From Lunularia cruciata (lineage: Eukaryota > Streptophyta > Marchantiopsida > Lunulariales > Lunulariaceae): a stretch of DNA of 64,000 nt. Position 1 is the stretch's first letter. The number at the start of each line of letters is the position of its first letter. Under the pieces are notes generated by a model that worked only from the letters and a program-made list of their open reading frames with translations, made no database searches and was not told the origin of the DNA. Positions 1,431-55,663 of this stretch are shown piece after piece. A program made the translations under genes and the position numbers. The stretch spans positions 62,120,911-62,184,910 of the forward strand of contig OX419760.1 of the NCBI GenBank assembly GCA_948567375.1, written 5' to 3'.

Positions 1431-2940
1431 CACTCACTTGCAGTCCTGCATTCTTTGTTTCATACCTAACTTTTTCTCATAAAGCTTCACTACAAAGACA
1501 TATTTTTCCAAAGAATGAGCCAATATAAGAATTACTTCTTCTTTGTATACACTTAGCACCTGAAAAAGAAAGAATAACAATTTTCCAAAATTTCTCATTG
1601 CTAGCCACATATGCAAGTGTATGCCTTGCATAGTTCTTTCCAACCTTCTACTAGAACTCTTGTAAGCTCTTTAGCTTGTCAGTCCGCACTCCTTGGTAGT
1701 TTTGCCTCAAGCACTCAAGGAACTCTACCATGGGGTTAAATTGTAATACTCCACCACCTCTTGCTATGATACCACCACTCGTAGTAGCACCATGTCCAAC
1801 TGGTGCACCACCATTAGATACATTGATGTTACTAGAACTAGAACTTGTGGGTATTGCTTGTCAACCTTGAGAAACCAAGCTTGAGGTGATGGAGATGTAG
1901 TCTAAAGGTCAATACTATTTCCATAGGTCAATCTCCTCTAAGTGTGCATGCTTGAACTTGAGGTAATTGTCCATAAGTAGACCCTCCAAGTGTTAGGACA
2001 ATCTCTTCCATGCCACAAAGAGTATGAACAAAGTAGAGTTTTGCATCTACTATAGATCACACTAGTCATCAAAATCTTGGATAAAGACATCCAACATAAT
2101 GGTACTTATTGTACCAAAGTAGTACTTGGGCATTTTGGATGCCCCATAAATCTAGTCCATGTGTCACAAAAATGATATAGTCACATAGTAAAAACTATGA
2201 ATTGGGTAAGCTCCTATATCAAACTCAAAAATAGTAATTCATTCCCTCATTAGGATCTAAGATATTGTTTGATATTGTGTGCTCCCTACATGAACTATTG
2301 CATATTGCAATAAAATCTCCTCTAGAATCCCCAGCAAAATTGATTTTAATAATGCATCCCAAACATTAGAACCATAATAATCAAATGCCACCACCAAATG
2401 GGAACCTCAACAATAACACCACCTATTAATGCCACCTAAGTACCTCTAACCATGACAACTATATTAGGGAAAAGTGCAACTTGTAACCTACCATCACAAC
2501 ACACACTCTCACAATCTACAAGTCATCACTACTTGCCTTGATAGAGAAAAAAATAGGCAGTTTGATTGGTCATCACTCTAGCCTCACTATCAAGAGCACA
2601 TTAAAACACCAATGCTCCAACTATCAAGATGTCCCAAACAAACATGGCACACAAATAAGAAGTAAAAGATTGGAGTGGATCTAATTACAAGAAGTTCAAA
2701 ATGCTCAAACTCACAAAAATCTAACATGATTGACTCCATCACCATTTGGCATTTTGACATAATAGGAATTTCTATCTACTCCGACCTACTACAATAACCA
2801 AGGATGGGATCAAATATCCTCCCTTAGCTAAAGGTACACATGTATAGTATGAGTCCACCAATCTTTAAGACAACAAGTAGGAGTGGACTATTTAGTTTAA
2901 GAACCAATTTAGGAACCAAAGGTCTAAGCTTCACACCCTA
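1431..2940 (-). pseudogene. Highly decayed second copy of the M-family leader and gag
   Basis: Read on the minus strand, this stretch aligns by eye with 20.5-21.97 kb of element M. Shared blocks include the leader around the M primer-binding site (CCAAATGGTG then GAGTCA), the gag block with GATTTATGGGGC, the block ending CTTTGTGGCATGG, and the block AGGAGTGCGGACTGACAAGC. Where M has a TAG after an Asn-Tyr pair (21768), this copy has CAA, so the ancestral residue was Gln. At the position of the M TAG at 21411 this copy also reads TAG. Frames are full of stops and small indels; only gag and leader are recognisable, and no LTR or methyltransferase part is visible. It shows the M family has amplified more than once in this genome. 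Confidence 0.75.
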
Positions 2941-3639
2941 TTGGGCACATTGCTGATGGATGGCTTGATTTCACAAACTGCATACCCACTCTAGCACAAA
3001 GACTCCAAGTTGCACTTGCAAGCTTTGTTCACTATAATCAAGAGCTCAACAAATAAGAAGTTGTACTTACTAGCTCCATCCACCATAGTTAGGAGCTCAA
3101 AGGCTTAACATAAAAGAAGTTGCCCTTGTTAGCTCTATCCACCATAAGTTACATAGTTAGGAACTTGAAGGCTCAACACATAAGAAGTGTGTTCTTTAGA
3201 GCTCCACTTCAAGGTATATCCTTCCCTAGGAAGACCAAGTGGTCTAGCCTTAATAGCACATCCAAATTAGCTTAGATATTGCAAATGTTATGACAAGAGT
3301 TTTGTATATAATAATAAATGCTACAAAATTAAAATATTTGAAGCTATGGCTAAATTTAAAATTTAGAAGGGGTTGAAAAAACTCAGAATATATGGAGGTA
3401 GAATTATAAGAATGAAGAAATTTTGAAATTTTTGTCTTTCTTTGATAAGAGAGGAATTTTGCTACATTGTACCCACTAAAGATAGTCCAACTTAGAATAG
3501 AGTTGTAGAGATTGAATCTATGCATGTAGGCAAAAAATTAGCAATTATTCAACATGCAAAGTTAGAAAATAAAATTTGGGATGAAAATATAACTATTAGT
3601 AATTTCTCAAGGAATATCAATTAGACTGTTGGATTATAA
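2941..3639. other. AT-rich stretch, nothing recognised
   Basis: No supported coding region, LTR boundary or RNA gene seen. A loose local repetition of 'agctc...caacacataagaagt' phrases occurs at about 3040-3190 but with no regular period. Confidence 0.4.
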
Positions 3640-4060
3640 AGGAAAAATCCTAAAGAATTATGGAGCAGAAAGAAATCTGACATTTCTATATGGAGAGATT
3701 TTGGATCTCCTACTTATGCTCATATCTTTAAGGTCAAAAAGAGAAAATTCACCAAGAATGCCAAAATGATGATTTTTGTAGGTTAGGAAGAAGGTTTGAA
3801 AGGATAACTTCTTTTGAATCCTAAAACTTGACAGATTATTAGAAGTTTGGATATTCTATTTGATGAAGTGGGAATTTGGGGAGAAAAAAATTGGAGAATA
3901 TTTGGAGTTAGATGATCAGCCTATCTTCCCAAGCTATAGGGTCAATTCTATAGATCAATCATCAAAGAAGCAGTGCTTACCTAAACCTCAAGAACCATCT
4001 AAAGAGACCTTAACAATGTATAAGAGGTGACTCTAGAAGAAACATACATTTGCATTGAGA
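3640..4060 (+). pseudogene. Ty1/copia integrase C-terminal fragment
   Basis: The plus-strand translation from about 3646 contains the Copia integrase-end signature: PKELWSRKKSD, then FGSPTYAHIF, KNAKMMIFVG, LLNPKT and DILFDE, in family order and spacing. This is the region that links the integrase core to the reverse transcriptase in Ty1/copia elements. Stops and a frame change near 3915 break it. No other Copia part is nearby, because element C2 begins at 4068 and interrupts it. It is the only Ty1/copia sequence I recognise in the window and probably the oldest layer of the stack. Confidence 0.7.
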
Positions 4061-4356
4061 TAGATGGTATAAAAGATTGAAAGGAGAAATAAGAGAAAGG
4101 AAGGTCACATTGGAATCCTCAGATTAGAGAAACTCCAAATTCCTAGCATGAGCTTGGGCTTTGGTATTTATAAGGAAGCAATATAAATTCCCAAGAAGCT
4201 TCCAAGTAAGTTTCCTTCTAGAAGTTGCCTTCTTGGGGTGCAAGCTAAGTTAAACACTAACTTGGTGTATTAGTTACTCAATCCTTGGAAAGTTCTTAGA
4301 AGCTTTTCACCAAGAAGCTTCCTAGGTGTTTGTAGAATATTTTACCAAGAAGTTTC

Positions 4357-6802
4357 TGTAATACCAATAGTTAGACATATGATCTAGAGATGAAATTTGG
4401 TTTGGTAACATCTAGAAGGATATTAGCATGATGGACTAAGTAGATCAGACAGAGATATTACCAAAATAGTACTTTTACTAATAGGCCAATGTGACAACCC
4501 AACCAATATCACTTTTGCTATAATCAAGTAAGTAATTTGTTCTCGTAGAGATACGAGTCAGAATTAGTCAAACACAAAGTCAAATAGTAACAAGTAGTTC
4601 TTTTTGAGTTCCTCTTTAGTCTCTTGGGTAGAAACCACATGACCCAAGCAAGAGTAACAAGCATTGATTTTCAGTCTTGTCACAAATTAAGACTCTCTAA
4701 TCACAACTCATTCAATTCTGTCCAAAAAAATCTTTATTGTGATGATTCAAATTCCTCCAAAGATGGCTCCTTCACTAAAGAGCACCTTCACGTCAAAATT
4801 GTGTTCCACTCCTCCACCGATGGCACAACTTCCTCAATCAAAATTGCTTCACATCAACTTAGCATTGCACTCACAATTGTAGAATACTACCCAACACTAG
4901 AATTCCTCTCAGATCTGTCAAGGTATTGCTTCAATTGCTATCCACTCAAGATCATCAAACACACAAAATGAAGATCAAGGCTATAGAATCCAACATCCAA
5001 CAAGCACACTGATTTGCACTTCTAAATTCTCCAAACACTCGCAAATACAAAAATACAAAATTGATGCTTGGAATTAAGCTCAAGCGACAAGCACTGAACT
5101 CAACACTTTGCTTTATCTATTCTAAGGAATATGAACACTAAAAAATTTTTTACTACAAAGATCTCTTTTAAATAGCCTGAGCTTTTGACAATTATCTAAC
5201 TCCCTAAACTACTTCCTAACAATCTCTAGATCCAAAATGGCAACCCACTTCTTCATATTTGTCAATTCCTATCTCAAATCTGTTACTACTCCAATCCAAT
5301 GTCTACCTCTACTTTGGCTTCCAAACCTGATGTAACTTCACACACTTCTCTATCTTTGGGTCTACCAAATACCACTAAATCCTTCTCTATTTCTACCATT
5401 TCTTCACCATGATCTGCAATTAAACTCATAGGTAATCTATCTACTTCCTTACCTTGCAAACCACTCCTCTCTAAAGTCTCAAGAAACTAAGTTGAAGACA
5501 TTAATTGTCTGATCCTACACTTTGGGTTCATTCACTACCGCTATTTTCTCTTCTAATTCTATCATATCTTCAATTAGGACTGAAATTGAAGTCATGGGTA
5601 TCCTAACTATCTTTTCTTTCTCTGTCATAACTATTTTAGACGTTTCAGACATCTGACCCAAAGACTCTTGCATCTTAAATCTAACTACCTTGGATTTAAT
5701 CACATTTTTCTTGAGGCAAAGTCTTTAGACCTGAAGTCTCTACACCCAAAGTCACATAGACACAAAGACACCAACCCGAAGTACGTCAACTACTCTATAC
5801 ATCTACTCCAAAAACTTAAAATGCTTGTAACCTTTGCTTAGACCTCCAAACTCAATGATTTTAGTGGCAATGGAAGCCCTAAACAAGACGCTTCCAACAA
5901 AATATAGCATGAAAAATTTGCACATGTGTTCACAGAGATATGGGCCCCAAAGTAACCTTGACCTGCAACCTTCATTCCGATGCAAAGTACCATCTTTTGG
6001 CGTCTGACCTCCTTCTTCTTCTTCCTTTGACACAAAGTAAACTTCTTTGGGTCTGATGCAATCCAAGTCCTTCTTCCTCTAACACAAAGTTGAATTTCTC
6101 ATGTTTGACCTGAATACTCAATTCTTCTTCTTTTGTCTCCATTTGGGTTCAATTTTGCCTTAACTCTACATTTCTTCTTCAAAACACGTCAAAACCAAAA
6201 ATGTGGTACCATAGCCAAAAACCAAAATATTTGGAAACTTTAGAATCAATAGCTAAGCATATGATCTAGAGGAAAACTTGGGGTGGTGACATCTAGAAAG
6301 ATGTTACATATGATAGAAAAACAATATCAGATAGAAGTATCACCAAAAGAGCACTTCTACTAATAGTGTAGAAGCCAAAATAGGCCTAAAAACTTTGGAG
6401 GCAATTTTGGAGGCCTAGACAAATAAATTAGGCCTTGAAAATGTACAAATCCCCCTTCCCTCCCTTTGATGGAGGAAAGGTTGGCCTTCCCCCCTCCCTA
6501 GTTTGTCTCACCAAGAGCTTTTCAATGGTGCCTCACCCACATGAATTTGAGATTCCTACAGGAGGATTCCCTCTAGTCAAAGCTTGTTTGACCAACCAGA
6601 TGGGACCCAAGACCAACATGTAACCTATCCAAGCAAGTAATCTAAGGGTGGAGCTTGCTGACATGTCACCTATCCATGTATGTAATCCTATGGTGAAGCT
6701 TCCTTGGAGGAGATACTTTTTGGATATATAATAAAGAGAAGGTGCTCCTTTGGGGCATCGGAGTTTTTCTCTATTGTGTTTCTCTATCCTTGGAATATTA
6801 TA
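4357..6802 (+). mobile_element. Solo LTR of family A (holding E1)
   Basis: Begins TGTAATACCAATAG and ends CTTGGAATATTATA, the family A LTR termini, with no internal A sequence. The 5-bp flanks GTTTC are identical. It contains the family core 'tatataataaagagaaggtgctcctttggggcatc' near 6730 and two copies of the about 150-bp U3 unit, the first cut by E1. It is best explained as LTR-LTR recombination of a former full element inside the C2 LTR. Confidence 0.88.
4490..6213. mobile_element. E1: 1.72 kb non-coding unit with 5-bp target duplication
   Basis: Starts TGTGACAACCC and ends GTGGTACCATA, flanked by GCCAA on both sides (4485-4489, 6214-6218), inside the solo A LTR. It is collinear with E2 (61139-62984). 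It has no protein resembling a transposase or retroelement; the reading frames inside (about 115 codons at most) are not clearly conserved in E2. The ends and duplication length fit a long solo LTR of a large-LTR family, or a non-autonomous LTR element. A TATTTAAA-like motif on the minus strand suggests minus orientation, but weakly. Confidence 0.75.
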
Positions 6803-18760: not shown

Positions 18761-19299
18761 TTTAGCTAGAACATAGATCCGGTCCTCATGGAATAAAAGG
18801 CCCTCCTTGATAAAGAAGGTGTTGTACTTCTTATTTCATGCCGTAAGGTGACCATGTACTATTTGGAAGAAGGGATCTTGGTGTAGAGCCGACTGAAACT
18901 TGTTTTGGACCTTGGAATCAACTGACATCGCTGAAATTGCCCTTGTGATGAGAGGAAGAGACTTCAAATCAGGTCGTCGTGATAAAGCATCAGGGATGAC
19001 ATGAAACCAACCTGGTTTTTACTCAAGTTTGATGTCATACAATTGGAGTTGTTCTTCCCATCAATGATGTTGACTCATCATGTGTTCCAAGTGTAAGGTC
19101 TGCAACAATGGCTTGTGATCAGTTTCCATGATCACTTGTTTCCCCAAGAGGTAATGCCTCCATACCTTGGTAGTGTATACCATTGCAAGTTGTTCTTGAT
19201 CTCGAGCAAAGTAGTTTCACTCAGCCGTATTGAGTCGGCAAGACACAAAGGCAATGGGATGGAGTCCATCTGGGAATTCTTGTTGCAACACAGCTCCAA
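18761..19299 (-). pseudogene. C1 RNase H and linker to integrase
   Basis: Minus-strand translation of 19299-18761 corresponds to the RNase H and tether of C4 (47741-48290), with phrases such as FVSCRLNTAE and TDHKPLLQTLHLEHM in broken frames. M inserted just upstream of it, between the first RNase H Asp segment (at 29232-29270) and the rest. Confidence 0.65.
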
Positions 19300-19747
19300 T
19301 GTCACGCCATTTGTAGTTCCGCATCTAGCTGCTCGGACACTGGAGTTCCAGTGATAGTAGTTAGAGTTATTCTAGTAGTTTCTCAGGGACTACTTTCCGA
19401 TAGTCTGATTTGGTGTTTGGGGTACTGACTTCACGGTGGGGCCCACCATCACTTTGCACCGTTCGCACCATCGAGTGTGCCATCAGCGGGACCGTTAGGG
19501 TTCCAGTGCTAGCTCGAGTCCAGGGGAGTATAGTTTTGAAGTGAGCTCCAGAGAGCTCACTTCTCTGATGTTGAGCCTTCGAGTTCTTGGCTATGGTGGA
19601 TAGAGGCTGGCTAGCGTCACCTGGATTCTCTATGCTTGAGTGGGTGTGGCTTGACTGTAATTAGTGCCCAGTTGTTGGTAGTTTATAGAGTGATAGATCA
19701 AGTACTGATCCGAGTTGAGTTGAGTTGAAAGTGTTAAGCAATCTGAT
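19300..19747 (+). repeat. M terminal segment b1
   Basis: 448 bp, about 95 percent identical by eye to b2 (28682-29123). Starts exactly at the left insertion edge with TGTCACGCC. In the 3' region the same segment is preceded by segment a; here it is not. Confidence 0.88.
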
Positions 19748-20700
19748 TACATCAAAGAAGTGAAGTCAGGGGGAAATTGGGTGTAGGAACGTTGAGTGTT
19801 GGTGGTATCTCCAAGCTCGGTGGATCGTGATAGCTCGATTCAAGTTCTGTGTTTCCCTAGTGTGCAGAAGCTCGTTCAAGTGATTCAGATTTGGCAGTTA
19901 GGCGGACGGTGTGCGGAAGCGCTGGCCAAATTTTGAGCAAAGAAGGAGCAATTTTTGAGCAGTGTTGTGATTTTGAGCTCAGGAGGTGAAGGCAGGACCA
20001 ATTTGCTGCAAGTTGGGCTCAAAAAGTGAAATTGAAGGTGGAGTTGGGAAGCTCTTCTCATGAAATTGTGATTTGGAAAAACCCGTCTTGTCAATTTGGC
20101 TCGAGTGGAAAGTTAGCAGGGGATTTGGCGGACAGTCATCTTTAGAGTTTACGTCAGATTTTATGTCAGATTTTGGGCCAGATTTGGAGGAGTTTTCGCT
20201 GTTTGGCCAGATTTGGAGGAGTTTTCGTTGTTTGGCCAGATTTGGAGGAGTTTTGCTAGTTTGGAGGACTTTTGCAGATTTGGAGAAGTTTTGCTAATTT
20301 TGGAAGAGGTTTCGAAGTGGCAACAAGAAAGGCCTCATTTGGCTGAATTTTGGCATTTAGAGGCTTCAAGGCATAGGGCTGTGGGCTATGAGAGGCTACG
20401 AAGGGCCAGCAAGCCAGCTTGCTAGCGTGAGGCTAGCTAGTTTTAGAGTAGATCTTGGTCATTGGTTGGCAAAATCTGCCTTTCTTGCTAGATTGTGCGC
20501 AATAGGGTTTGACCCCTAGATCTCTTGTTCCTAGACTGGTGCCCTAGCCAACTGGTCCACCCTCACTTGTTGTCCTAGTGACTGCACCACTGTTATCTAT
20601 ACACATGTAGCTTTGGCTAGGAGAGGCAATTTGATCCCATTCTTGGTGATCTTGGTAGCTTAGGACTTAGATACTAACTGCTCTTATGTCAAATGCCAAA
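19748..20700 (+). other. M leader or LTR continuation with 29-bp tandem repeat
   Basis: No supported gene. Holds about three tandem copies of a 29-bp unit beginning GGCCAGATTTGGAGGAG at 20176, 20205 and 20234, followed by degenerate pieces to about 20300. If the primer-binding site at 20701 is real, this segment would belong to a long 5' LTR and is absent from the 3' end. Confidence 0.6.
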
Positions 20701-20715
20701 TGGTGGCAGAGTCAG
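20701..20715 (+). other. Candidate M primer-binding site (iMet-like)
   Basis: TGGTGGCAGAGTCAG differs at three of 15 positions from the plant iMet site TGGTATCAGAGCCAG. The decayed copy at about 2.7 kb keeps TGGTGATGGAGTCA at the matching place. Plausible, not certain. Confidence 0.45.
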
Positions 20716-21104
20716 TCCCGTGTTGTGTTATGAGATGGAGGGTTTTGTTTAGATTTCTTGTGATTGGATCCCCTCCATTCTCTGCTTCCTGTTTGTGCAC
20801 CACGTTTGTATGAGGTGCCCTGACTTTTGAGCGTTGGTGCTCTGGTGTGCTCTCGGTGGTGAGGCTGGAGTGATGACCAATCAGACTACCTTTGTTTCTC
20901 TTCGGTGAGGCAGGAAGTGATGACCTACAGACCGTGAGAGTGCGTGTTATGATGGCATGTTACAGGTTGCCTTTCCCCTAGTGTAGTTATCTCGGTTAGA
21001 GTTACATTAGTGGGTGGTGTCTAGTTGGTGTTGGCACTTGGTGGGGCACTTGCGGTTGCGACTTGCGGTTGCAGTTGGTGGTTCGGGTTTGCTGTTGCAA
21101 TTAC
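20716..21104 (+). other. M untranslated leader before gag
   Basis: No conserved reading frame; partly conserved in the decayed minus-strand copy. Confidence 0.5.
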
Positions 21105-22499
21105 ATGGTCACGATTGAGTTCTTTGGAGATTCCAGAGGAGTTAGCCCTGCAGTACACAGTGGGTTTACTCGGAGTGGTGCTTGGTATCAGCCTGTATCT
21201 CAGGTCCTAGTGAGGGAGGAGATTGACTCTGAGTTGGAGTTCGACATAGGAGCTGATTCAATTGAGAGTGCACTTGGTATGTCCGCACCGTTGTTGTGGG
21301 ACATGGACAAGATTTATGGGGCCTCCAAAGGCCCTAGGTGTTACTCTGGTACAGTGGGTACCATTGAGTTGGATGACTTCATCCAAGAGTTTGATAGTTG
21401 GTGTGATCTGTAGCAGATGCGGAACCCGACTTTGTTCACACCCTTCATGGCATGGAAGGGGTGGTTTCAGCATCTGGAGGGTCCGCCGATGGATGACTAC
21501 CATGAGTTCAGGAGAGCTCATTTGGAGGAGATTGAGTTATGGAGACAGTATTGGTCTCCACACTACGTCTCCATTACTTCAGGCTTGGTGGCCAGGAGTA
21601 GATCGGCTGTACCCACGAGTTCTAGCTCGAGTAGTGTTGGTGGAGCTAGTGGAGGTGCACTAGCTGGAGATAGTGCTGCTACAAGTGGAGGTACCGCTGC
21701 ATGAGGTGGGGTGGTACCGGGGTTTAACCCCATGGTTGAGTTCTTCCTATGTTTGAGGCAGAACTACTAGGGAGTGCGGACTGACAAGCTGAGGAGCTTG
21801 CAGGAGTTCCAGCGGAAGGCAGGAGAGAGCCTACGCGAGGCATACACTCGCATGAGGCGGCTGATCAGTTTCACTCAGGGAGTTACCGAGGCCCAGGCAG
21901 TCCAGTTTTGGTATAGGATACTGGACAAGGAGTTGCGATGTAGAGTTCGTGATGCTACATTGTTGTAGGCTACTTCACCCACTTTGGCAGTAGTCTTTGG
22001 TTTGGTTGAGCGTATTGAGCTCAACATGGTGGAGGAGAGAGTGGTGACATCTGGATTTGGTAGAGAGACCTCATCCACGATTGTGACTTCTTCTAGAGTG
22101 CAGCAGAGTGCACCACGCCTAGTTGGTTTTTGAGGACAAGATGGACAGCCCAGATCCTATGGACCGAGTGGAGGGCCTAGTGGAGTTAGACCCTTACCCT
22201 CATTTTTGGGTTAGCAGCAACTAGTGAGTGGTGGTGTTGCTTGTTGGACTTGTGGTGGACCTCACCATAGGAGAGAGTGTACTTAGGGCAGCGGACCTGA
22301 TACCTCTGGTGCATCACAGCCATCATAGAGGCAGTGTGAGCACTACCACAGATTTGGTCACACTAGTGACCGGTGTTTTGACCTACACCCGGAGTTACAG
22401 AGTGGTAGGGCTGCTATGGCAGGTAGTAGAGGAGCTCCAATTCATGGAGGACGAGGTGGTAGAGGTGGTGGTAGAGGATCTACACCTAGTAGGGGGCAA
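21105..22499 (+). pseudogene. gag: M gag with two CCHC knuckles
   Basis: First ATG of the conserved frame is 21105 (MVTIEFFGDSRG). Capsid-like region: ELDDFIQEFDSWCDL, FMAWKGWFQHLEG, EFRRAHLEEIELWRQYW, then a Ser/Gly-rich hinge and LRSLQEFQRKAGESL, REAYTRMRRLISFTQG, QFWYRILDKELRCRV, typical of plant retrotransposon gag. Knuckles: CWTCGGPHHRREC at about 22238-22276 and a second at about 22335-22376 in which one Cys is Tyr. An Arg/Gly-rich tail follows. In-frame stops: TAG at 21411, 21768, 21966, 22212, 22284, 22326; TGA at 21702 and 22131. It would coat the RNA. Confidence 0.85.
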
Positions 22500-23881
22500 T
22501 ACCTGCCCTTACTTCTGACACAGCTATGGCTACTCGAATTGAGCAGTTGGAGCAGAGATTGGCTAGTATGGCTATTGCTCAAAGGAGATCAGATTTGGGT
22601 GCTGAGGCTTCCACCTCATATGCTGGTGATAGAGATGCTTTGGATTTCATGTGTGGAGCAGCACAGGTGGATGCATCTGTAGCAGTGACTAGGAGTGTAG
22701 TACGTGCTCCAGAGCCTAGAGGAGCATCAATGGAGTTGGACCCACAGAGAGGAGAGGTTGGGAGACAGGTCAGACTTCCCCAGTCTTTCACACTATCTGA
22801 GGCATTACAGATGACATCCATGGTTCCTAGACGTCCCAATGCAGATGTGGTAGGTGGTGATGGAGTACCTAATGGAGTACCTGCTAGTCAGCCACCTGCT
22901 ACTACACAAACTTAGTCTAGCATGATGTTGGGGGCGGCTCAGCTGATTATGCGGCATCCTTTATTTTCAGCCAGTGACATGTTTACATTGGGAGTTGACC
23001 CAGCCCCAGTATTCCGGTTGGCTGCCACGTTGTGTGAGAGTAGAGATAGTGCAGTTCCTATTACTAGAGCAGAGGTGGTTGGTAGTGGAGCTGACTTGGT
23101 TGAGGAGCATGGGATCCATTCAGCGACCAGTGGTTTATGGTAGGCAGTAGCGGCTAGACTGGAGGAGTTGCCAGCTAGACCGGCCTTTGAGAGAGCGCGG
23201 TTTACACCTGGTGTTGTCCTATCGGATAACCAGAGGGGGATCTTTTGTTTGGTGGGACCTTTAGGGAAGGTCTATACACCAAAGAGAGTCTTGTTAGACT
23301 CCGGTGCGCAGCCCCTTATGTTGGAGAAGGCTACAGTTCTCAGTTTGGAGTTATGGAAGACTGATGTGGAGAGGTGTCCATTTCAGATCCAAACATCTCT
23401 TGGTGGTAGTTCAACACAGTACATCACACGTGGAGAGCTTGTTGTCTAGGTTCAGCCTAGTCATCCGACTGATAGCTCGGTGGTGAGAGCTCAGGCTATT
23501 GCGACGATAGCTGAGTCATATGATGTGCTAGTTGGAGGAGCAGTGTTATACCCTATGGGTTTCAACATTGACTATTGGGAGGAGACAGCCTCTTATAGAC
23601 CTGGTTGGCAGTCTAGTGAGGGACGGGTATGTCGCCTACCAGTACGCTTCAGAAGTGGCAGTCTTGGCTCACTACAATTCGGGACCATGGCAGCATCAGT
23701 TTTGGCTTTCAGCGGTGCAGTTACTTGGCCTGGTGACTTGTTGGAGGGGAACACCCATGTAGAGGATACTCCAGTACCTGAGGAGATCACTCGACTTTGG
23801 AGTACGAGTGGGATTGTTCCATCTACCTTGGATGTTCCATTGTGGAGTTCAGAGGAGGCATTGCAGTAGCATGCAAATCAA
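22500..23881 (+). pseudogene. M pol N-terminus with aspartic protease
   Basis: The frame changes relative to gag near 22500. A coiled-coil-like start (ATRIEQLEQRLASMAIAQRR) leads to a spacer, then KRVLLDSGAQPLMLEKA with the active-site Asp-Ser-Gly at 23297-23305, and YDVLVGGAVLYPMG near 23522 as the second protease motif. A 120-residue spacer rich in Trp and Ser follows before the methyltransferase. TAG stops at 22913, 23141, 23447 and 23867 are the only breaks in this frame, so it was one continuous reading frame with the methyltransferase. It would cleave the polyprotein. Confidence 0.82.
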
Positions 23882-24973
23882 TTGGTGCAACAGGCTTGGA
23901 GTGGAGCCTTTGTACCATCAGGGGATGAGTGTGAGGATGAGCCTCCAGAGGCATTTGCTTTGACACCTCTGGATACCACACTCATTGCTTGGCAGTATCC
24001 AGTAGAAGGGATATGTCTATTGGAGTTGTTTGGTGGGATCAGCACCGGACTAGCTGCGGTGTTACAGGCGGGTATACGAGTACAGAGGTACTTGTATGTA
24101 GAGAGAGATGAGACTGCTAGGCAAGTCTCTCTACATCATGTGGCACACTTGGCTTATCGGTATCCAGAGTTATTACCGATGTCAGCAATCAGAGGTTACC
24201 AGAAGGCCTTACCCAGAGACATTTCCTTACTGGGGACGCATGACCTAGAGAGACGTGGGCCTATTCACTTGGTGATTTCTGGATGGCCATGTCAGGGACA
24301 TACACATGCAAGCCACGGCTTGGGTCTTCAGGATCCTCATTCGGGTGTGTTTTGGGAGATGTTACGGATACTAAGACATCTCCAGGTTCATTAGTCTGTT
24401 TCTCCAGCTTACCTTTTGGAGAACATTCCATTGATGGGTGATTCTTGCACTACAGTGGTGGCAAGTACACATCAGGTCCATTCATGGATGGGACCTGCTG
24501 TATTGTTAGATGCAGCCAGAGTGGGATCACGGGCGCATCCTCTTCGTCTTTGGTGGACAAACCTCTTACCCAGAGAGGTTCTACAGCGTAGTTATGATGG
24601 GATTCAGCGACTAGACCACATTCTTGTTGATGATATCTTGGATGCTGGACGTCAGTCTCAGACAGTGGTAGTGGCTGATAGGTCACCTATGGCAGTGGTG
24701 AACCTAGTTGGACAGCCTAGAGCTGCATTTCCCACACTCATGAGTTTCCCAGGCTCTCATGCTTTTCGAGAGGGAGGACCTGGACTTGTTTGGGACTCAC
24801 AGTTACAGCAGTTGGTGGAGCCCAATGCTGATGAGAGAGAGCAGGCGATGGGTTTTTGCACCGGTATGACCGATGTTCCAGCAATGTCAAAGGCATCTAG
24901 GCGTCAGGTGTTAGGTCAGGCTATGGACCTGAACTGTTTGACCTGGATTGTGAGCCTTAGCTTGGCAGAGTAG
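23882..24973 (+). pseudogene. DNMT3-like cytosine-5 DNA methyltransferase domain within M pol
   Basis: Motifs in canonical order: I, ICLLELFGGISTGLAAVL near 24012-24065 (AdoMet pocket); IV, HLVISGWPCQGHTHA with the catalytic Pro-Cys, Cys at 24290-24292; VI, LLENIP with the Glu at 24419; VIII, HPLRLWWTNLLP at about 24536-24571; IX, ADEREQAMGF at 24827-24856; X, RRQVLGQAMDLN at about 24899-24934. The stretch MGFCTGMTDVPAMSK resembles the DNMT3 family segment before motif X, and the I-to-X order excludes the rearranged plant DRM type. It is in the same frame as the upstream protease, interrupted only by TAG at 24392, and is followed by RT. Catalytic residues survive. It would methylate cytosines in DNA using AdoMet; target unknown. 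Confidence 0.88.
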
Positions 24974-25400
24974 CAAAGGATGCGCTTGATAGGCATCACC
25001 ACTCGGACACTTGTGAGCCTTGTGCCTATCGAGACAATTCAGGCACATGCTGGGAGCAATGGACCGAGTGGACATGGTATTCTTGGGACACATCCAGTAG
25101 CTACTAGGGAGAGTGGTCTACTTGGAGTCCATCCAGGTGAGCGTGGGCTACTTGGATTACACCTTTGGTCCACATGGGATGCAGCCAGAGGACGTGTGGA
25201 GCTTGCAGCCAGAGTGGAGGGAGTTTTTCACACAGAGGTTGGGACCTCTAGTGGTCGAGAGCATGACACTATTGCTCCCAAGGGCCCAGTGTAGCAGCCA
25301 GTCAGTACGTCTTCCACTTCTACTACAGTTACAGAGGATACTTGGGAGCCAGATCTTGGACCCAAGCTTACTAGAGAGGAAAGACGGAGGGTTTGGAGGT
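24974..25400 (+). pseudogene. M linker between methyltransferase and RT
   Basis: The frame is uncertain here. In one frame DYTFGPHGMQPEDVWSL and PEWREFFTQRLGPLV look coding (about 25155-25265) and lead toward the RT. No domain recognised. At least one indel separates it from the methyltransferase frame. Confidence 0.5.
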
Positions 25401-27143
25401 TCTTGAGGAGTCACACGAGTTGTTTTGCCTTCAGTATGAAGGATTTGGGTGCTTTGAAGGGACTTGGTATACAGATTGAGCTGACTAGCGACACCAGTTT
25501 TCCGACGTCCTTATCGATATAGTGATATGGAGAGGACATTGATTCAAAGCCGGAGTAGTGACCTTTTTGAGGCTGGTTTGGTAGAGATTTCACATAGAGA
25601 GTATGCATCAGCGACAGTGATGCCAACCAAGAAGGATATGCATGGCAACTATATAGATAGGCGGATGTGTGGAGATTACCGTCCTATCAACCGATAGACC
25701 AGGGCTGATCGGTATGCCATGCCTACATTGGAGGAGATTTTTGATGCGATTGGGCATGCAAAGGTCTTCAGTACTTTGGATCTTTGAGCGGGATATCATC
25801 AATTGCCGATCAAGGAGGAGGATAAGTCCAAGATAGCATTTTGGGCTATTGATCCTCACGGCAAGGATGTGTTATATTAGTGGAGGTTCTTACCATTTGG
25901 GTTGAAGAATACTCCCGCTGAGTTCCAGAGGGTCATGGATAGGATCCTAGCTGGATTGGATTTTGCTTGGTGCTATATTGATGACATTTTGGTTTATAGC
26001 ACTACTGTGGAGGAGCATGAGAGACAATTGTTGGAGGTGTTTGAGAGGTTGAGATCTCATGGAATCAAATTACATCCTGGGAAGTGTAGGTTCTTCCATG
26101 AGCAGGTTGAGTATTTGGGTCACACTATCTACCCCGGAGGACTTGGTGTCCAGCAGACCAAGGTGGAGGCTATTGCACGTATTCCTTGGCCTACGGATGT
26201 GAGCAGAGTGCGAGCATTCCTTGGGTTGGCAAACTTCTATTGCCGCTATGTTAGAGGATTTAGTGCCATTGCCAAGGCCTTGACAAAGCTGACTAAGCTT
26301 ACACAAGAGTGGTGTTGGGGAGATGAGCAAGAGAGAGCTTTTGTAGAGCTCAAGAAGAGGTTGACATCTGCTCCTATTTTGAGGAGACCGATCAGGGGAC
26401 AACCATTTCAGGTTCACACTGATTGGAGTATGTTGGGGCTTAGAGCGGTGCTCACCCAACATGATGATGAGGAGAAGGAGTTTGTGGTGGCCTATGCTAG
26501 TTGCTCCAACAATTCAGCGGAGGTGAAGTATAGTTCATATGAGGGAGAGTGCTTGGCAGCAGTTTGGGCAGTAGTACATTTCCGATGTTACCTATTTGGT
26601 AACCCCTTCACTCTCATCACTGATCATCAGCCACTGAAGTGGTTGATGGAGTCCGACAAGCTTTCAGGGAAGCTTGCACGATGGGCTCTAATTTTACAAG
26701 AGTATGATTTCACGGTTGTTCATAGACCTGGAGTGGTGAACCGTGATGCAGATGGGTTGAGTAGAAACCCATGTCCCAGCCAGCAGGATCAGACCGGAGC
26801 ACGTTGGCATGGTGAGACAGATGAGGAGATGGTGCCAGGTTGGCATGCATCGGCCTTTCTGTGTATATTTGCAGAGACTTTGGTGGTATCTCTCTCAACG
26901 CATATAGGAGGAGTTATTGAGGTCACAGATCCAGAGAGTGAAGATATTGGTACAGTTCAGCGAGACATTCATGATGATGTCTTAGTGATGGACTATCTTT
27001 GCACTGGTGTTGTGGGTGGCACAATTGGGTCCAAGGAGAGAGACCGTGTTCTTCAGCGAGCCAGACGGTTCAGATTGGAGGGTAGACACCTTTTGCGTGT
27101 TTGGGAGGATGGTAGAGTGCGAGTAGTACCACTTCCATCATAG
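25401..27143 (+). pseudogene. M reverse transcriptase and RNase H
   Basis: RT: FSMKDLGALKGLGIQIEL, RRPYRYSDMERTLIQ, YASATVMPTKKDMHG, CGDYRPINR, VFSTLDL then AGYHQLPI (motif A), FLPFGLKNTPAEFQRVMD, and CYIDDILVYS with both catalytic Asp at 25980-25985. Thumb YLGHTIYPGGL and FLGLANFYCRYVRGF. RNase H: FQVHTDWSMLGLRAVL (Asp), YEGECLAAVWAV (Glu), LITDHQPLKWL (Asp) and NRDADGLSR (Asp), all retained. The 413-codon open stretch 25902-27143 is the longest intact part of M. Stops: TAG 25695, TGA 25785, TAG 25878, TAG 27141. Confidence 0.92.
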
Positions 27144-28258
27144 AGACCACAGTTGGTCCGTCATGCTCATGAGGAGCTAGGACATTTTGGAGTAAAGCGT
27201 ACATATAGCTTACTTCAGAGTCATTATTGGTGGCGCGGTATGCAGACCAAGGTGCAGTAGTTTGTTGCCAGATGCGTGGTTTGTGACTGAGTTAGAGCAT
27301 CATTCAATGCTCATACGCCACAGTTACACCCATTACCTATCATGGGATTGGGTTACCGTTGGAGTTGGACTTTGCCGGACCTTTACCGTTGACTGTGAGA
27401 CATCATCGGTATGTTTTGGTGATGGTGGAGCACTTCTCCAAGTGGATTGAGTTGGTGGCACTTCCTGACAAGTCTAGTGAAGGGACAACTTACTCGTTCC
27501 TAGATCGAGTTTTTAGTCATTTTGGTGCACCAGCTGAGGTTTTGACTGATCAAGGTATAGAGTTCTTGGGAGAGTTTCAAGTCTTGTGTGACAAGGCTTT
27601 GATTGATCATTGTACTACATCCCGAGATCACCTTGAGGCAGATGGCTTAGCAGAGAGAGTGGTTCAAACGGTGAAGAGAGGATTGCGAAAGTATGGTTTG
27701 CAAAGAGGCCACTTAGGAGATTGGGATCTCCAGTTACCTTGGTTGGCCATGGGCTATCGGTTCAGCCGGCAAGCCTCCTTAGCATCCTTCTCTCCATACT
27801 TTCTACTCTATGGACGAGATCCAGAGTTACCTGCAGCCATTTGTCAAGATGCTACTATAGTTTTGGACTTGGATGACCCCGATGTATGGATGAGCGCATG
27901 TTCTCAGCGGGCAGAGATCTTTCGGAGAGTGATGCCAATGGCCTTTGAGAACTTGGCGATTGCTCAGCATAGAGATACTTTACGCTATGCTACCATTCGA
28001 GGAAGAGATTATAGACCCTCGATCCGTCGATTTCATCTAGGTGACTATGTATATCTACAGCAGACAGCACCGACAACACCTGATGTTTCTACAGGCCGCA
28101 CTATCTTGAGAGTACACGAGGTTTTGCCATCTGGAGTCCTTGTGTTAGAAGGACGTGATAGTGTTGTTTGGAAGGATCATGTGCGCAATTGTGCGCCATG
28201 CCACCTCCCAAACATTGATGGTACTATGGACCCAAGCTTGGCACTTGTACGTGCAGGC
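27144..28258 (+). pseudogene. M integrase (HHCC and DDE core)
   Basis: HHCC module at 27150-27290: HAHEELGHFGVKRTYSLL, HYWWRGM, CVVC. TAG 27258 and TGA 27288 interrupt, and a frame change near 27345 separates it from the core. Core: MELDFAGPLP (first Asp 27368), VLTDQGIEFLGEF (second Asp 27548) and DGLAERVVQTVKRGL (Glu about 27653), giving D-x59-D-x34-E. ASFSPYFLLYGRDPELP, DYRPSIRRFHLGDYVYL and the C-terminal VHEVLPSGVLVLEGRD follow. It would join element DNA to the host chromosome. It runs without a stop into the PHD finger. Confidence 0.92.
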
Positions 28259-28405
28259 TTGAGGTGTATGTTATGTGGCTCTTTTGGTGGAGCTGCTACT
28301 ATGTTAGTGTGTGATAGTTGTTTGAGAGGATGGCATATGGCATGTATGACTCCTCCCCTCACGGTGGTTCCTCAAGGACAGTGGTTATGTCCTAGATGTA
28401 CTTGA
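28259..28405 (+). CDS. PHD finger at the C-terminus of the M integrase
   Basis: The last 48 codons of the 348-codon open frame 27359-28405 read as a Cys4-His-Cys3 zinc finger: CMLC, 11 residues, CDSC, LRGW-H, MAC, 14 residues, CPRC. Spacing is C-x2-C-x11-C-x2-C-x4-H-x2-C-x14-C-x2-C, with the conserved Trp two residues before the seventh Cys, exactly the PHD pattern. All eight zinc ligands are intact and the frame ends with TGA at 28403. PHD fingers of other proteins bind histone H3 tails, so by analogy with chromodomains it may guide integration; which mark is unknown. It replaces the chromodomain seen in families A and C. Confidence 0.9.
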   Translation: MRCMLCGSFGGAATMLVCDSCLRGWHMACMTPPLTVVPQGQWLCPRCT

Positions 28406-28572
28406 CCTATAGCTAGTTCATTCTTTATATGGTATAGATTGCAGACAGGCAACTAACGATGGGGCTCCATAGCACCCGGCCTCCTGATCTTTGCCCATTA
28501 GAGGGTATACCATATACTTAGAGTAGATGGCTATCTGGAGTTAGAGGGACCTAACCGCCAGCTAGGGGGGCG
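28406..28572 (+). other. M 3' untranslated region with G-rich tract
   Basis: Short non-coding stretch ending AGCTAGGGGGGCGA (28559-28572), a possible polypurine tract right before segment a1. Confidence 0.5.
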
Positions 28573-28679
28573 ATTGTGGCACTTTAGAGTCTATGTATGA
28601 CTTATGTGTGAGTTGTGCTTCTATAGTGTATGATGTTGACAGCAATGTATGTTGTGTAGCAATGTATATACACACAACA
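28573..28679 (+). repeat. M segment a1
   Basis: 107 bp from ATTGTGGCACTTTAG to CACACAACA. Repeated at 29124-29231. Joined to b2 by the dinucleotide GC, forming ACAGCTGT. Confidence 0.88.
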
Positions 28680-28681
28680 GC

Positions 28682-29123
28682 TGTCATGCCATTTGTAGTT
28701 CCGCATCTAGCTGCTCGGACACTAGAGTTCCAGTGATAGTAGTTAGAGTTATTCTAGTAGTTTCTCAGGGACTACTTTCCGATAGTCTGATTTGGTGTTC
28801 AGGGTAATGACTTCACGGTGGGGCCCACCGTCACTTTGCACCGTTTGCATCGTCAAGTGTGCCATCAGCGGAACCATTAGGGTTCCAGTGCTAGCTCAAG
28901 TCCAGGGGGTATAGTTTCAAAGTGAGCTCCAGAGAGCTCACTTCTTTGATGTTGAGCCTTCGAGTTCCTGGCTATGGTGGACAGAGGCCGGCAAGTGTCA
29001 CCTGGATTCTCTATGCTTGAGTGGGTGTGGCTTGATTGTAATTAGTGCCCAGTTGTTGGCAGTTTATAGAGTGATAGATCAAGTACTGATCTAAGTTGAG
29101 TTGAAAGTGTTAAGCAATCTGAT
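28682..29123 (+). repeat. M segment b2
   Basis: 442 bp copy of b1, starting TGTCATGCC and ending AAGCAATCTGAT; then runs straight into a2. Confidence 0.9.
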
Positions 29124-29231
29124 AATTGTGGCACTTTAGAGTCTATGTATGACTTATGTGTGAGTTGTGCTTCTATAGTGTATGATGTTGATAGCGATGT
29201 ATGTTGTGTAGCGATGTATATACGCACGACA
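29124..29231 (+). repeat. M segment a2 (right end)
   Basis: Second copy of segment a, ending GCACGACA at the right insertion edge. It keeps CpG at several positions where a1 has CpA. Confidence 0.88.
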
Positions 29232-30150
29232 CCAATTGCAAAGTTAGAAGCATCAAAATCAACCACACAAGGTAGTTGAGGATCATATGGTTGAAGAATG
29301 GGTCTTGAAGACACCATATGCTTTAAGTTCTGGAATGCTTCTTCATGCTTGGTGGTCCATTGGAAACTCAAGTTCTTTCCCAAGAGGTCAGTCAATGGTG
29401 TAGCCACATGAGCATAATAATGGATGAACCGTCAGTAAAAATTGGCCAATCCATTGATGCCCGTACTTCTATAGCATCCTTTGGGGTAGGCCAATTAGTA
29501 ATGGCCTTGATTTTCTCTTCCATCTTGATCTCCTCTGATGAGATCTTATGACCCAAGAAGGTAACCTCCTTCTGCCAAAAGGCACACTTTGACTTCTTGT
29601 AGTAAAATTTCCATTGTCGTAGTCATCTTAGGACTTCTCGCACATGATTCATGTGTTTTGCTTTTGTCTTACTATAAATTAAGATATCATCCAAGAACAC
29701 CACCACGGACCAATCCAATAGTCCATCCAACACTCAATGCATCTAATCCATGAAGACTACTAGAGCATTAGTGACTCCAAAAGGTAGAACTTTCCACTCA
29801 AAATGCCCATACCTTGTACAAAAGGTAGTCTTTTGCACATCCTCTCTATCAATAGGAATTTGCCAATAGCCGCTACAAAGATCCAACTTGGAAAAGTAGC
29901 GTGCTCCACTTAGTGGATCAAGCAAGTCATCAATCCGAGGCAAGAGATATGCATTCTTCATGGTTTGCTTATTGAGCCCACGGTAATAAATTCAAAAACA
30001 AAGTCCTCCATCCTTCTTTGGAACAAATAGTACCGATGCTCTCCAAGGAGAGGTACTATGTTGTATGAAGTCCTTCTCCAACAACTTTGTAAGTGTTATT
30101 CACAACTCCTCCAACTCCTTTGGTGAGAGCCGATAGATTGGTCAACTCAC
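29232..30150 (-). pseudogene. C1 reverse transcriptase and first RNase H segment
   Basis: Minus strand: [33 protein letters not shown] (motif A), [19 protein letters not shown] (motif B'), FLDDIL with both catalytic Asp at 29691-29686. The RNase H entry CVVDFDASNFAIGV lies at 29232-29280, cut by M. The RT start PGSTPVS and LYRLSPKELEEL lies around 30110-30170. Several stops. Confidence 0.82.
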
Positions 30151-36840: not shown

Positions 36841-38132
36841 ACATCTAAGAATAGTAAATCCCAAGATGAGAAGTTTTTTTGTATAGTAGCTATAGAACAA
36901 GCTTGAGAGAAAGATAGCATTGTTATTGTTGTATGGTACAAGCCAACTGCACAAGGAGAATCTAATAAGGGTAAGAAACCTCAATAAGAAATGGCTGATC
37001 AAATAGTGCAAGAGTTTTCAGATGAATTTTTGGATTATCTTCCAAAAGGGTTACCTTTTGATCAAGATATGCCCTTCAAGATTAATCTATTCCCCATTAT
37101 TACTCTTGTGAGTAGACCAATCTATAGGCTCTCTCAAAAGGAGTTAGAAGAGCTTCAAACAATATTGATCAAGTTTTTAGAAAAGAATTTCATATGATAT
37201 AGTACATCTCCTTAGGGAGCACTAGTACTCTTTATACCGAAATAAGATAGAGGACTTTGATTTTGTATTGACTACCATGACCTTAATAAAAAAACCGTGA
37301 AGAATCTATATCCATTGCTTTGTATTGAGGACTTGTTGGATCAATTGAATGGAGCACAATACTATTCCAAGTTGGATCTTCAAAGCAACTATTGGTAAAT
37401 TCTCATTGATTGGAAGGATGTGCAAAAGGCTACCTTTTGCACACGGTATATGTATATTGAGTTGAGAGTTTTACCTTTTGGGCTCACTAATGCTCCAATA
37501 GTTTTCATGGATCAAATATATCAGGTTAGATAGGCTATTGGATGTACATGTGGTGATGTTCTTGGATAATATTTTAATCTATAGTAAGATAAAGCATAGC
37601 ACAAGAATCATATACAAGAAGTCCTAAGGTAACTTTGCCAATGGAAGTTTTACTAAAAGAAGTCAAAGTATGGCTTTTGGTGCATTGTTAACCATCTTTT
37701 GGAGAAGACATCAAGCTTTTAATGAATCACCAAGCACAAAGAAGCATTAAAAAAACAAAGCATATGGTGCCTTCAAGACCTATCCTTCAACCATATGATC
37801 CTCAACTACCTTGTGTGGTTGATTTTGATGGTTTTAACTTTAACATTGGAGCTAGGTTCTAGTAGGAGTTTCTAGATGGATTCCATCCCGTTCTTTTTGT
37901 GTCTCAATGATTAAACACCACAAAAAGAAATTACTTTGCTTAGGATCAAGAACAATAGCAATGGTATATGCCATAAAGGTATGGAGACATTATCTCTTGG
38001 GAAAACAATTAATCAAGTAAACTAATCACAAGCCTTTGTTGTAAACCTTACATTTTAAGCACATGAAGAGTCAACATCATTGATAGGAGAAATAACTATA
38101 ATTGTTTAAATCAAGCTTGAGAACAAACTTGG
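36841..38132 (+). pseudogene. C3 linker, reverse transcriptase and RNase H start
   Basis: VQEFSDEFLDYLPKGLPF, ISRPIYRLSQKELEELQ-like entry, [12 protein letters not shown] (motif A), [18 protein letters not shown] (motif B'), MFLDNILIYSK with the second catalytic Asp replaced by Asn (about 37563). RNase H entry CVVDFDGFNFNIGA and HYLLGKQLIK follow. Interrupted by stops; C4 interrupts it after 38132. Confidence 0.78.
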
Positions 38133-39949: not shown

Positions 39950-40641
39950 TGTGAGCCAGCCTGTCTCTCACTCAGGATGAACCTCTGATGGCTATTATGG
40001 TAGCGCACCATGGACTAAGAAGGCAAGGAACCCAAACTCCATCATACTCCTCCAAGGCTAACACTCCAAGACTCAAGACATTGCTCACTAGAGAACTCAA
40101 TGAGAGAGAGATAGTTGCAAATGAAAGGATGATGAGTACCTCCTCATCCCTTGTTTATATACTTGTGAAATAGTTACGTACCAAAGTTACTAATTACCGT
40201 AGGAACTCAAGTTGCTAGACTAAAAGTCAAATAAATTCAAAAAGTAGAAAGGAATATCCATTCACATGGGCATATTCCCCTAAGCATGTGGTCTTATCTT
40301 GACCCAACCACTAAGTCAAGGATTCCTTCACATGGGCTATCCTTGGACTAAAGAAGAATCCAAAACAAAAAGGCTTGCGGGCCCAAGAGTTCTCAACTCT
40401 TTCCTCAACGCTAAACACCTAGGAATAATACCAAGTCAACACACTAAAATCCAAAATAGTGGTGCTCATCTTTTCTCCTTCCTCTAAAGTAAGGTCCCCT
40501 CTATCTTAGCTATGACTAACTTTAGCTAACCATGACTAATATAGAACCATCCTTTATCTTTATATAAATAATATCTCTTAAGTACTTGTAATACCACGTT
40601 AAATATCACAATACCACACACATGCACATATGGGTGTTACA
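39950..40641 (-). repeat. F1 3' LTR
   Basis: 692 bp, plus-strand ends TGTGAGCC and GGTGTTACA. The polypurine tract (minus GTCCGGGGGTAAA) is at 40642-40654. Confidence 0.95.
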
Positions 40642-47740: not shown

Positions 47741-48290
47741 GTACCATTTGGAAGAAGGGATCTTGTTGTAGAGATGACCGAAACTTGTTATGGGCCTTGG
47801 AGTCAATTGACACCATTGTAATTGCCGCCATGATAAGAGGAAGAGCCTTCAAATCAAGTTGTTATGATAGAGCATCAGGGATGACATGGAACCAACATGG
47901 TTTGTACTCAAGTTTGATGTCAAATAATTGGATTTGCTCTTGCCATCGATGATGTTGACTCTTCATGTGTAAAAGTGTAAGGTCTACAACAATGGCTTGT
48001 GATTAGTTTGCATGACCACTTGTTTCCCCAAGAGGTAATGCCTCTTTACCTTGGTGGCATATACCATTGCAAATTGTTCCTAATCTTGAGTAGAGTAATT
48101 TCTTTTAGTTGTATTTAGTTGGCAAGACACAAAGGCAATGAGATATAGTCCATCTGGGAATTCTTGTTGCAATACAACTCCAATTGCAAAGTTAGAAGCA
48201 TCAAAATCAACCACACAAGGTAGTTGAGGATCATATGGTTGAAAAATGGGTCTTGAAGACACCATATGCTTTAACGTCTGGAATGCTTCT
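47741..48290 (-). pseudogene. C4 RNase H and tether
   Basis: Minus strand: LPCVVDFDASNFAIGVVLQQ (first Asp), FPDGLYLIAFVSCQLN, NTTKRNYSTQD, a TAG at the usual Gln, then HYLLGKQVVMQTNHKPLL-like segments. Open for 61 codons at 48265-48080. It removes RNA from RNA-DNA hybrids when intact. Confidence 0.78.
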
Positions 48291-55423: not shown

Positions 55424-55663
55424 CTTAACCCCTCACTATCTTTCTTTTCTCTCAAATTTTTTTTTTTTTTTTCTTTTCTTTTCTCTCACTCTATTACTAA
55501 TAGAGTATATACATGACTAACACCATCTGAGAATAATCCACTCTAGGGAACACAAAAGGTTCAGGTTGCTCCAAGATTTCTATAGCAACATCAAATCCTA
55601 AAGTGCATATTAATCTAACTCTCATGGATAGTTTATCCATAAGTTGAAAGATTATCTCCATCA
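55424..55663 (-). other. F2 spacer between leader frame and gag-pol
   Basis: 240 bp containing an A-rich run on the minus strand (55458-55475); the run is shorter in F1. No gene. Confidence 0.6.

What the first reader, a model, noticed from the sequence alone, without database searches (positions are those of the whole stretch)
23882..24973. DNMT3-like cytosine methyltransferase built into a retrotransposon polyprotein
Seen: motifs I, IV (Pro-Cys), VI (Glu-Asn), VIII, IX and X in canonical order, in the same reading frame as the upstream aspartic protease and followed by RT, RNase H and integrase. Known: such domain order belongs to the DNMT1/DNMT3 class, not to plant DRM, whose motifs are rearranged; from memory, cytosine methyltransferases captured by retrotransposons have been described in some algae and dinoflagellates. 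Inference: a plant-type Ty3/gypsy-like element captured a DNMT3-type enzyme and placed it between protease and RT, perhaps to methylate its own or host DNA. A mobile element spreading the host's silencing enzyme is counter-intuitive.
Basis: partly seen in the sequence, partly recalled or inferred. Interest (0 to 1): 0.95.

Follow-up and report, generated by a model that had tools for sequence, protein, structure and literature searches.

The report
Retrotransposon carrying a DNA-methylating enzyme
This is the decayed remains of a plant jumping element that carries its own copy of the kind of enzyme hosts use to silence such elements; the kind was described in an alga in 2018, and here it turns up in what looks like a moss or liverwort relative, together with a histone-reading finger and a probable 'leaky stop' signal.

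Summary
Observation confirmed. Window 24008-24949 encodes a DNMT3-type cytosine methyltransferase core (family profile: DNMT3A first, E 6e-23), in frame with the aspartic protease and ahead of RT, RNase H and integrase, inside a complete nested insertion (19300-29231, CCAA target duplication). It is no one-off: 138 relatives were found, and the 16 of 120 listed that bear an organism name are all bryophytes; an intact relative, L001, has the same order. The kind is known: KnitGypsy-Dnmt3 of Klebsormidium (PMC5890265) has DNMT3 in a Gypsy Pol and the same odd repeats, A-coding-B-A-B, also present here. Not found in ten open-access library searches: bryophyte members, the PHD finger behind the integrase, the TAG-CAR-YYA readthrough-type signal found once in each element, at the boundary of ORF1 (Gag-PR-DNMT) and ORF2 (RT-RH-IN-PHD), the kept B-GC-A junction that suggests integration from a circle, and a second architecture with the domain between RNase H and integrase. 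This copy is dead. What the enzyme does for the element is inferred: most likely methylation of its own cDNA.

The parts
19300..29231 (+). Whole inserted element (A-coding-B-A-B), nested in an older element on the minus strand (its RNase H region, by eye from the ORF at 29042-29407)
   Evidence: repeats, target duplication; the joined flanks align without a gap to uninterrupted copies of the host element (181 of 200 identical within 47900-48300; 147 of 184 within 37700-38000)
19296..19299 (.). Target-site duplication CCAA, left copy
29232..29235 (.). Target-site duplication CCAA, right copy (a following T could make it 5 bp)
19300..19747 (+). Repeat A, left copy (starts TGTCACGCC)
   Evidence: aligned stretch 94.7% identical to the right copy (410 of 433 ungapped columns), 21 transitions, 2 transversions
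28560..28572 (+). Polypurine-tract-like run before repeat B (AGCTAGGGGGGCG); L001 has GCTAGGGGG aligned at the same place
   Evidence: function inferred
28573..28679 (+). Repeat B, first copy
   Evidence: 102 of 107 identical to the second copy, 5 transitions, 0 transversions
28670..28690 (+). B-GC-A junction (cacaacaGCtgtcatg), also in L001 (cacgacaGCtgtcacg)
28682..29123 (+). Repeat A, right copy
29125..29231 (+). Repeat B, second copy (ends CGACA)
21342..22415 (+). Gag-like region with CCHC knuckles (22236-22415), frame 3, with stops
   Evidence: 27.7% to the L001 gag piece, 52% to Marchantia P0128 residues 1-165
23276..23644 (+). Aspartic protease (LLDSGAQPL), frame 2, one stop inside
   Evidence: 45% over 124 aa to L001, E 2.8e-28; Pfam Asp_protease_2 above its cut-off in relative P0132, below it in P0125, P0164 and L001 ORF1
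24008..24949 (+). DNMT3-type cytosine methyltransferase core, one in-frame stop
25292..25300 (+). ORF1 stop TAG CAG CCA: readthrough-type context, the only TAG-CAR-YYA on the element's + strand (1 of 217 TAGs)
   Evidence: L001 has its only one at 3489 (1 of 101)
25337..26138 (+). Reverse transcriptase (start in frame 2, rest in frame 3)
   Evidence: 61% to L001 over 215 aa
26319..26708 (+). RNase H
   Evidence: 72% over 130 aa
27108..27700 (+). DDE integrase (first part in frame 3, core in frame 2)
   Evidence: rve E 1.5e-11; 64% and 69% to L001
28256..28399 (+). [quoted passage not shown]
   Evidence: PF00628 E 3.5e-10; best PDB match CHD4, E 1.8e-15 (sum over its two fingers); 65% to L001
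1611..2949 (-). 5' part of a second, older copy of the family (70.6% identical), rest outside the window; A-like pieces within 3074-3212
   Evidence: its methyltransferase region, if any, is not in the window

Best explanation
A dead copy of a Ty3/Gypsy-like retrotransposon of the KnitGypsy-Dnmt3 kind, most likely in a bryophyte. Shown by sequence (here and in the intact relative L001): ORF1 = Gag-CCHC-protease-DNMT3; ORF2 = RT-RNase H-integrase-PHD; in the window, split direct repeats A-coding-B-A-B and an insertion with a short target duplication. Inferred: (1) ORF2 is made by occasional readthrough of the TAG-CAR-YYA stop, so the methyltransferase is made in Gag-like, not RT-like, amounts; (2) the enzyme, carried in the particle, puts 5-methylcytosine on the element's own new cDNA, so that the copy passes as host DNA and/or is quietly silenced after insertion; (3) reverse transcription makes an ordinary [B-GC-A]-coding-[B-GC-A] cDNA, which closes to a two-LTR circle and is cut by the integrase at one internal B-GC-A site, giving exactly A-coding-B-A-B; (4) the PHD finger steers integration by reading the histone H3 tail, as chromodomains are thought to do in chromoviruses.
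For: DNMT3 identity. Same layout, both ORFs open, in L001. In the DNMT tree (quick method, SH-aLRT only) the window sits in a set of 10 rows with support 100, with Marchantia P0128 and Calypogeia P0004. Catalytic residues in 76 aligned domains of 270 aa or more, window and L001 included: motif IV Cys in 73, motif VI Glu in 74 and Asn in 74. Domain identity window/L001: PR 45, DNMT 50 (over 314 aa), RT 61, RH 72, IN 64 and 69, PHD 65%: the methyltransferase is kept about as well as the protease and less well than RT, RH, IN and PHD. C4HC3 pattern in 113 of 117 proteins with a PHD match (most were found by a query that contains PHD). Readthrough context: once on the + strand of each element, at the ORF boundary and in frame; 1 of 911 TAGs in the rest of the window. 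Repeats and insertion. Same repeat order reported for KnitGypsy-Dnmt3. CG/CHG bias of changes between repeat copies: 21 of 27 transitions in CG or CHG against 145 of 506 cytosines, p 7e-8 (direction C to T assumed), so this copy was methylated, by whichever enzyme.
Against: No activity shown for any member of this family; the K. nitens domain gave none in yeast (called inconclusive by its authors). PMC5890265 notes that retrotransposons without a DNMT also move in those genomes. No tRNA primer-binding site was seen next to the left repeat A (by eye), which the ordinary reverse-transcription step needs. L001 holds B and A once only (collapsed or circular contig), so it cannot confirm A-coding-B-A-B; the window holds one complete copy. 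4 of 120 listed IN-PHD proteins run DNMT-RT in one frame with no stop, so readthrough is not universal. The CG/CHG bias is as well explained by host enzymes. Selection on the domain could not be measured.
Confidence: 0.65

Rival explanations
1. The methyltransferase acts on the host side: it raises methylation of genomic copies or neighbouring chromatin and so holds the element in check (self-restraint), rather than protecting the cDNA.
For: This copy shows CG/CHG-biased decay; a slowing of retrotransposition that benefits the host is discussed in PMC5890265.
Against: The decay is expected from host methylation alone; placement of the domain in the Gag ORF favours action in the particle.
Confidence: 0.2
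2. The domain now serves mainly as an RNA- or DNA-binding or RNA-methylating module, not as a DNA methyltransferase.
For: 15 of 33 domains of the mid-position architecture have Glu-Cys in place of Pro-Cys; the K. nitens domain gave no methylation in yeast.
Against: 41 of 43 domains not classed as mid-position keep Pro-Cys; Glu and Asn of motif VI are each kept in 74 of 76.
Confidence: 0.15
3. The odd repeats reflect DIRS/PAT-type replication (circle formed by pairing of split repeats) rather than a two-LTR circle cut at an internal site.
For: Same order A-coding-B-A-B as in DIRS-like elements; the authors of PMC5890265 compare the two.
Against: DDE integrase and a target duplication here, where DIRS1-like elements have a tyrosine recombinase and make no duplication; a purine-rich run precedes B in both elements.
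Confidence: 0.3
4. A one-off chimera: a piece of a host DNMT3 gene trapped in, or interrupted by, a retrotransposon.
For: The copy is broken and the window holds no second complete copy.
Against: Protease-methyltransferase order in bryophyte proteins and in L001 with both ORFs open; 52 of 120 listed IN-PHD proteins carry the domain.
Confidence: 0.01

Closest known systems
KnitGypsy-Dnmt3 of Klebsormidium nitens (de Mendoza et al. 2018, PMC5890265)
   Same: Ty3/Gypsy-type Pol with an unrearranged DNMT3 domain in the coding region; repeats A-coding-B-A-B with Gypsy domains.
   Different: Named relatives here are bryophytes. PHD finger and readthrough signal: the term 'PHD' occurs 0 times in its main text, but its figures and supplements were not seen, so it may have them.
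SymbioDIRS-Dnmt3 of Symbiodinium (same paper)
   Same: DNMT3 in Pol; A-coding-B-A-B repeats; two domain orders coexist.
   Different: Tyrosine recombinase, no DDE integrase; dinoflagellate; a separate acquisition according to the authors.
Chromoviruses (Gypsy elements with an integrase chromodomain)
   Same: A histone-reader-type domain at the C-terminus of integrase.
   Different: PHD finger instead of chromodomain; extra DNMT3; split repeats.
Plant DNMT3 (PMC6453930, passages only)
   Same: DNMT3-class catalytic domain, motif order unrearranged.
   Different: A host gene with a C-terminal DUF3444; none seen here. No plant DNMT3 sequence could be put in the tree.

Membership tests
KnitGypsy-Dnmt3-type elements | Gypsy-type RT-RNase H-DDE integrase | tested here: met
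KnitGypsy-Dnmt3-type elements | DNMT3 domain with unrearranged motifs inside the element's coding region | tested here: met
KnitGypsy-Dnmt3-type elements | Repeat order A-coding-B-A-B | tested here: met
   reported for K. nitens
KnitGypsy-Dnmt3-type elements | Purifying selection on the domain (Ka/Ks < 0.2 among copies) | not testable with these tools
   no DNA of close copies in hand; the source-genome search did not complete (12 calls)
KnitGypsy-Dnmt3-type elements | Groups with the K. nitens sequences in a tree | not tested
   no K. nitens sequence was identified by name among the hits listed
DNMT3 | Best similarity to DNMT3 among C5 methyltransferases, by profile and fold | tested here: met
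   the fold was made for relative P0003, not for the broken window copy
DNMT3 | Cytosine-C5 DNA methyltransferase activity | not testable with these tools
   bench assay needed; this copy has a stop inside the domain
DRM (plant) | Rearranged motif order (VI-X before I-V; recalled) | tested here: not met
   I, IV, VI, VIII, X in ascending order
DIRS elements | Tyrosine recombinase, no target duplication | tested here: not met
   rve (DDE) integrase; CCAA duplication; definition
Chromoviruses | Chromodomain at the integrase C-terminus | tested here: not met
   Searches (E up to 0.1; E up to 0.01): PHD there, no chromodomain

The most novel reading that the evidence does not exclude
An old clade of Gypsy-like elements, spread over bryophytes and green algae, that carries a chromatin writer (DNMT3) and a chromatin reader (integrase-PHD) on one replicon, makes the writer in Gag-like amounts by stop-codon readthrough, and integrates from a two-LTR circle cut at an internal site by a DDE integrase: a retrotransposon that marks its own DNA and chooses its chromatin by a life cycle of its own.
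Probability: 0.3. Interest if true: 0.82.

Novelty: new member of a known kind. Interest (0 to 1): 0.6.

Why it matters
A mobile element that spreads the host's silencing enzyme is a direct test case for what methylation does to a transposon. [quoted passage not shown] the bryophyte relatives here contradict that for land plants as a whole, and bring the question into Marchantia, a genetic model. The readthrough signal, the PHD finger and the B-GC-A junction turn an unclear role into experiments: stoichiometry, target choice and circular intermediates.

Tried and rejected
Relatives in viral contigs: three scans, no confirmed match. The window's own genome: the genome search with the same request did not answer in 12 tries, so copy number, dN/dS within the genome and host identity are open. 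Host name: not established; bryophyte is inferred from the nearest named relatives only.

One capture or two: the DNMT tree puts the 33 mid-position domains on one side of a branch, but with support 52 (weak), and the two outgroup rows, DNMT3A and P0181, do not root it (DNMT3A falls beside the window's set). In the quick integrase tree 46 of 48 mid rows fall in one 47-row fork (the window is not in that tree). In the careful pol tree 20 mid rows sit in a 22-row branch with two rows lacking the domain, a strict single clade is rejected (p-AU 0.018), and the four rows with the domain ahead of RT are scattered. So 'one relocation' is a guess.

Stops: 21 distinct in-frame stops, 17 TAG, 4 TGA, 0 TAA, the ORF1 stop among them; the commonest aligned residue was Gln in 6 of 17 TAGs and Arg in 2 of 4 TGAs, so a pure C-to-T origin is not shown by this. 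Selections: the profile A1 used 19 of the 120 relatives listed plus the window domain; the fold alignment A3 used 34 relatives; DNMT rows under 270 aa were left out of the tree and of the residue counts; integrase rows of 150 aa or less were left out, which dropped the window (it is).

Papers: PMC5890265 abstract, outline, parts 1-2 of 7, sections 9-11 and one term search; PMC6338049, PMC12344493, PMC6453930, PMC3266345, PMC9516144, PMC10952607, PMC12542154 passages only; others search listings only. PMC12344493 calls the LTR elements Copia, where PMC5890265 says Gypsy. Statements that something was not found in print rest on searches in an open-access library; most subscription papers and the supplements of PMC5890265 were not seen.

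Full report
What is there. The window is repeat-rich. Positions 19300-29231 are one insertion: repeat A (19300-19747), coding region, repeat B (28573-28679), GC, repeat A (28682-29123), one base, repeat B (29125-29231), flanked by CCAA. It lies in an older element on the minus strand, in its RNase H region as judged by eye from the ORF at 29042-29407; the joined flanks align without a gap to uninterrupted copies elsewhere in the window (181 of 200 and 147 of 184 identical). The A copies are 94.7% identical over the aligned stretch (21 transitions, 2 transversions), the B copies 95.3% (5 and 0).

Not a one-off. A protein search gave 138 relatives, 120 listed; the 16 listed rows with an organism name are Calypogeia (4), Sphagnum (4), Marchantia (7) and Riccia (1). 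Several run from zinc knuckle or protease into the methyltransferase: P0132 by Pfam, P0122, P0125 and P0128 by comparison with L001's protease. Marchantia P0075 joins parts of the methyltransferase with the integrase end and PHD. A scan of prokaryote genomes confirmed one locus, L001, a 9285-base contig with 127 identical bases at both ends, filed under a cyanobacterium but taken to be an element of a eukaryote: ORF1 gag-CCHC-protease-DNMT (ending 3491) and, in the same frame, ORF2 RT-RNase H-integrase-PHD (3504-6635), both without internal stops.

Two ORFs and a leaky stop. In L001 the ORF1 stop reads TAG CAA TCA; in the window the stop at the matching place reads TAG CAG CCA, with RT following in frame. 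Both fit TAG-CAR-YYA, the readthrough context known from tobacco mosaic virus (recalled). The motif occurs once on the + strand of each element, 1 of 217 and 1 of 101 TAGs, and 1 of 911 in the rest of the window. Readthrough is therefore likely, not shown, and four proteins of the clade run DNMT-RT without a stop.

PHD finger. The integrase polypeptide ends in a C4HC3 PHD finger (PF00628, E 3.5e-10), nearest in the PDB to PHDs of CHD4, KMT2, PHF12, KAT6A and KDM5 proteins. A search with integrase plus PHD gave 428 proteins, 120 listed; the organisms named in the listed rows are Haematococcus lacustris, Volvox reticuliferus and a Spirochaetia MAG, and one row is a EukProt transcript without an organism name. 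Of these 120, 117 have PHD (expected from the query) and 52 the methyltransferase: 48 with it ahead of integrase and no RT after it (20 RT-RH-DNMT-IN-PHD, 26 DNMT-IN-PHD, 2 RH-DNMT-IN-PHD) and 4 ahead of RT. The two positions fall mostly in different parts of the integrase and pol trees, with the exceptions told under Tried and rejected. In the mid-position set 15 of 33 have Glu-Cys in place of Pro-Cys, against 0 of 43 of the rest. Methylase-encoding retrotransposons in green algae as such were already known (PMC6338049), so the algal part may not be new.

How it may work. A purine-rich run precedes B, and A precedes the coding region, so ordinary reverse transcription would make B-GC-A repeats on both ends. 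A two-LTR circle of that product, cut at one internal B-GC-A site, is A-coding-B-A-B, the order seen here and reported for KnitGypsy-Dnmt3. The junction cacRacaGCtgtcaYg is kept between the window and L001, and the region around it aligns better than any of 200 shuffles (score 106 against at most 88). This is an inference; no primer-binding site was found by eye. The enzyme is most likely used on the element's own cDNA, as its discoverers suggested for DIRS-type relatives. The transitions between repeat copies fall in CG or CHG in 21 of 27 cases, against 145 of 506 cytosines (p 7e-8): the copy was methylated after insertion, by the host, itself or both.

State of this copy. 21 in-frame stops, the ORF1 stop among them, and frame changes near 22.4, 25.5 and 27.3 kb: it is dead. 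Constraint is visible only across species: 50% identity to L001 over 314 residues with the catalytic residues kept.

Known and new. De Mendoza et al. 2018 described the kind. Not found in the ten library searches are the bryophyte elements, the PHD finger, the readthrough signal, the junction and the second position of the domain; the figures and supplements of that paper, which could show some of these for K. nitens, were not seen.

Noticed in passing
window 50597-55432 (-): An open 1611-residue frame of another Gypsy-type element (gag-, protease-, RT-, RNase H- and integrase-like by eye; RT, RNase H and integrase matched); 300-base repeats at 39950, 47049, 49857 and 56999 (97-100% identical) suggest two young sister insertions.
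   Followed up: partly
window 1611-3212 (-): 5' part of a second, older copy of the methyltransferase element family (70.6%), cut by the window's edge.
   Followed up: partly
relatives P0254, P0277, P0224 and others: In 15 of 33 methyltransferases classed as mid-position, motif IV reads Glu-Cys (mostly GWECQ) in place of Pro-Cys while Glu-Asn of motif VI is kept.
   Followed up: no
L001 1-127 and 9159-9285: A complete retrotransposon with both ORFs open sits as a circular-looking contig in a cyanobacterial MAG (AVDCRST_MAG81); similar proteins are filed under an Obscuribacterales MAG (P0127) and a Spirochaetia MAG (P0283): probably eukaryotic contamination of prokaryote genomes.
   Followed up: partly
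P0186 (EukProt, Trinity transcript): A complete RT-RNase H-integrase-PHD frame in a transcriptome, in a starred three-row set with the window in the pol tree, so members of the clade are probably transcribed.
   Followed up: no
window 19748-28572: CpG observed/expected is 0.40 in the element's interior against 0.18 in the rest of the window and 0.82 in L001.
   Followed up: no
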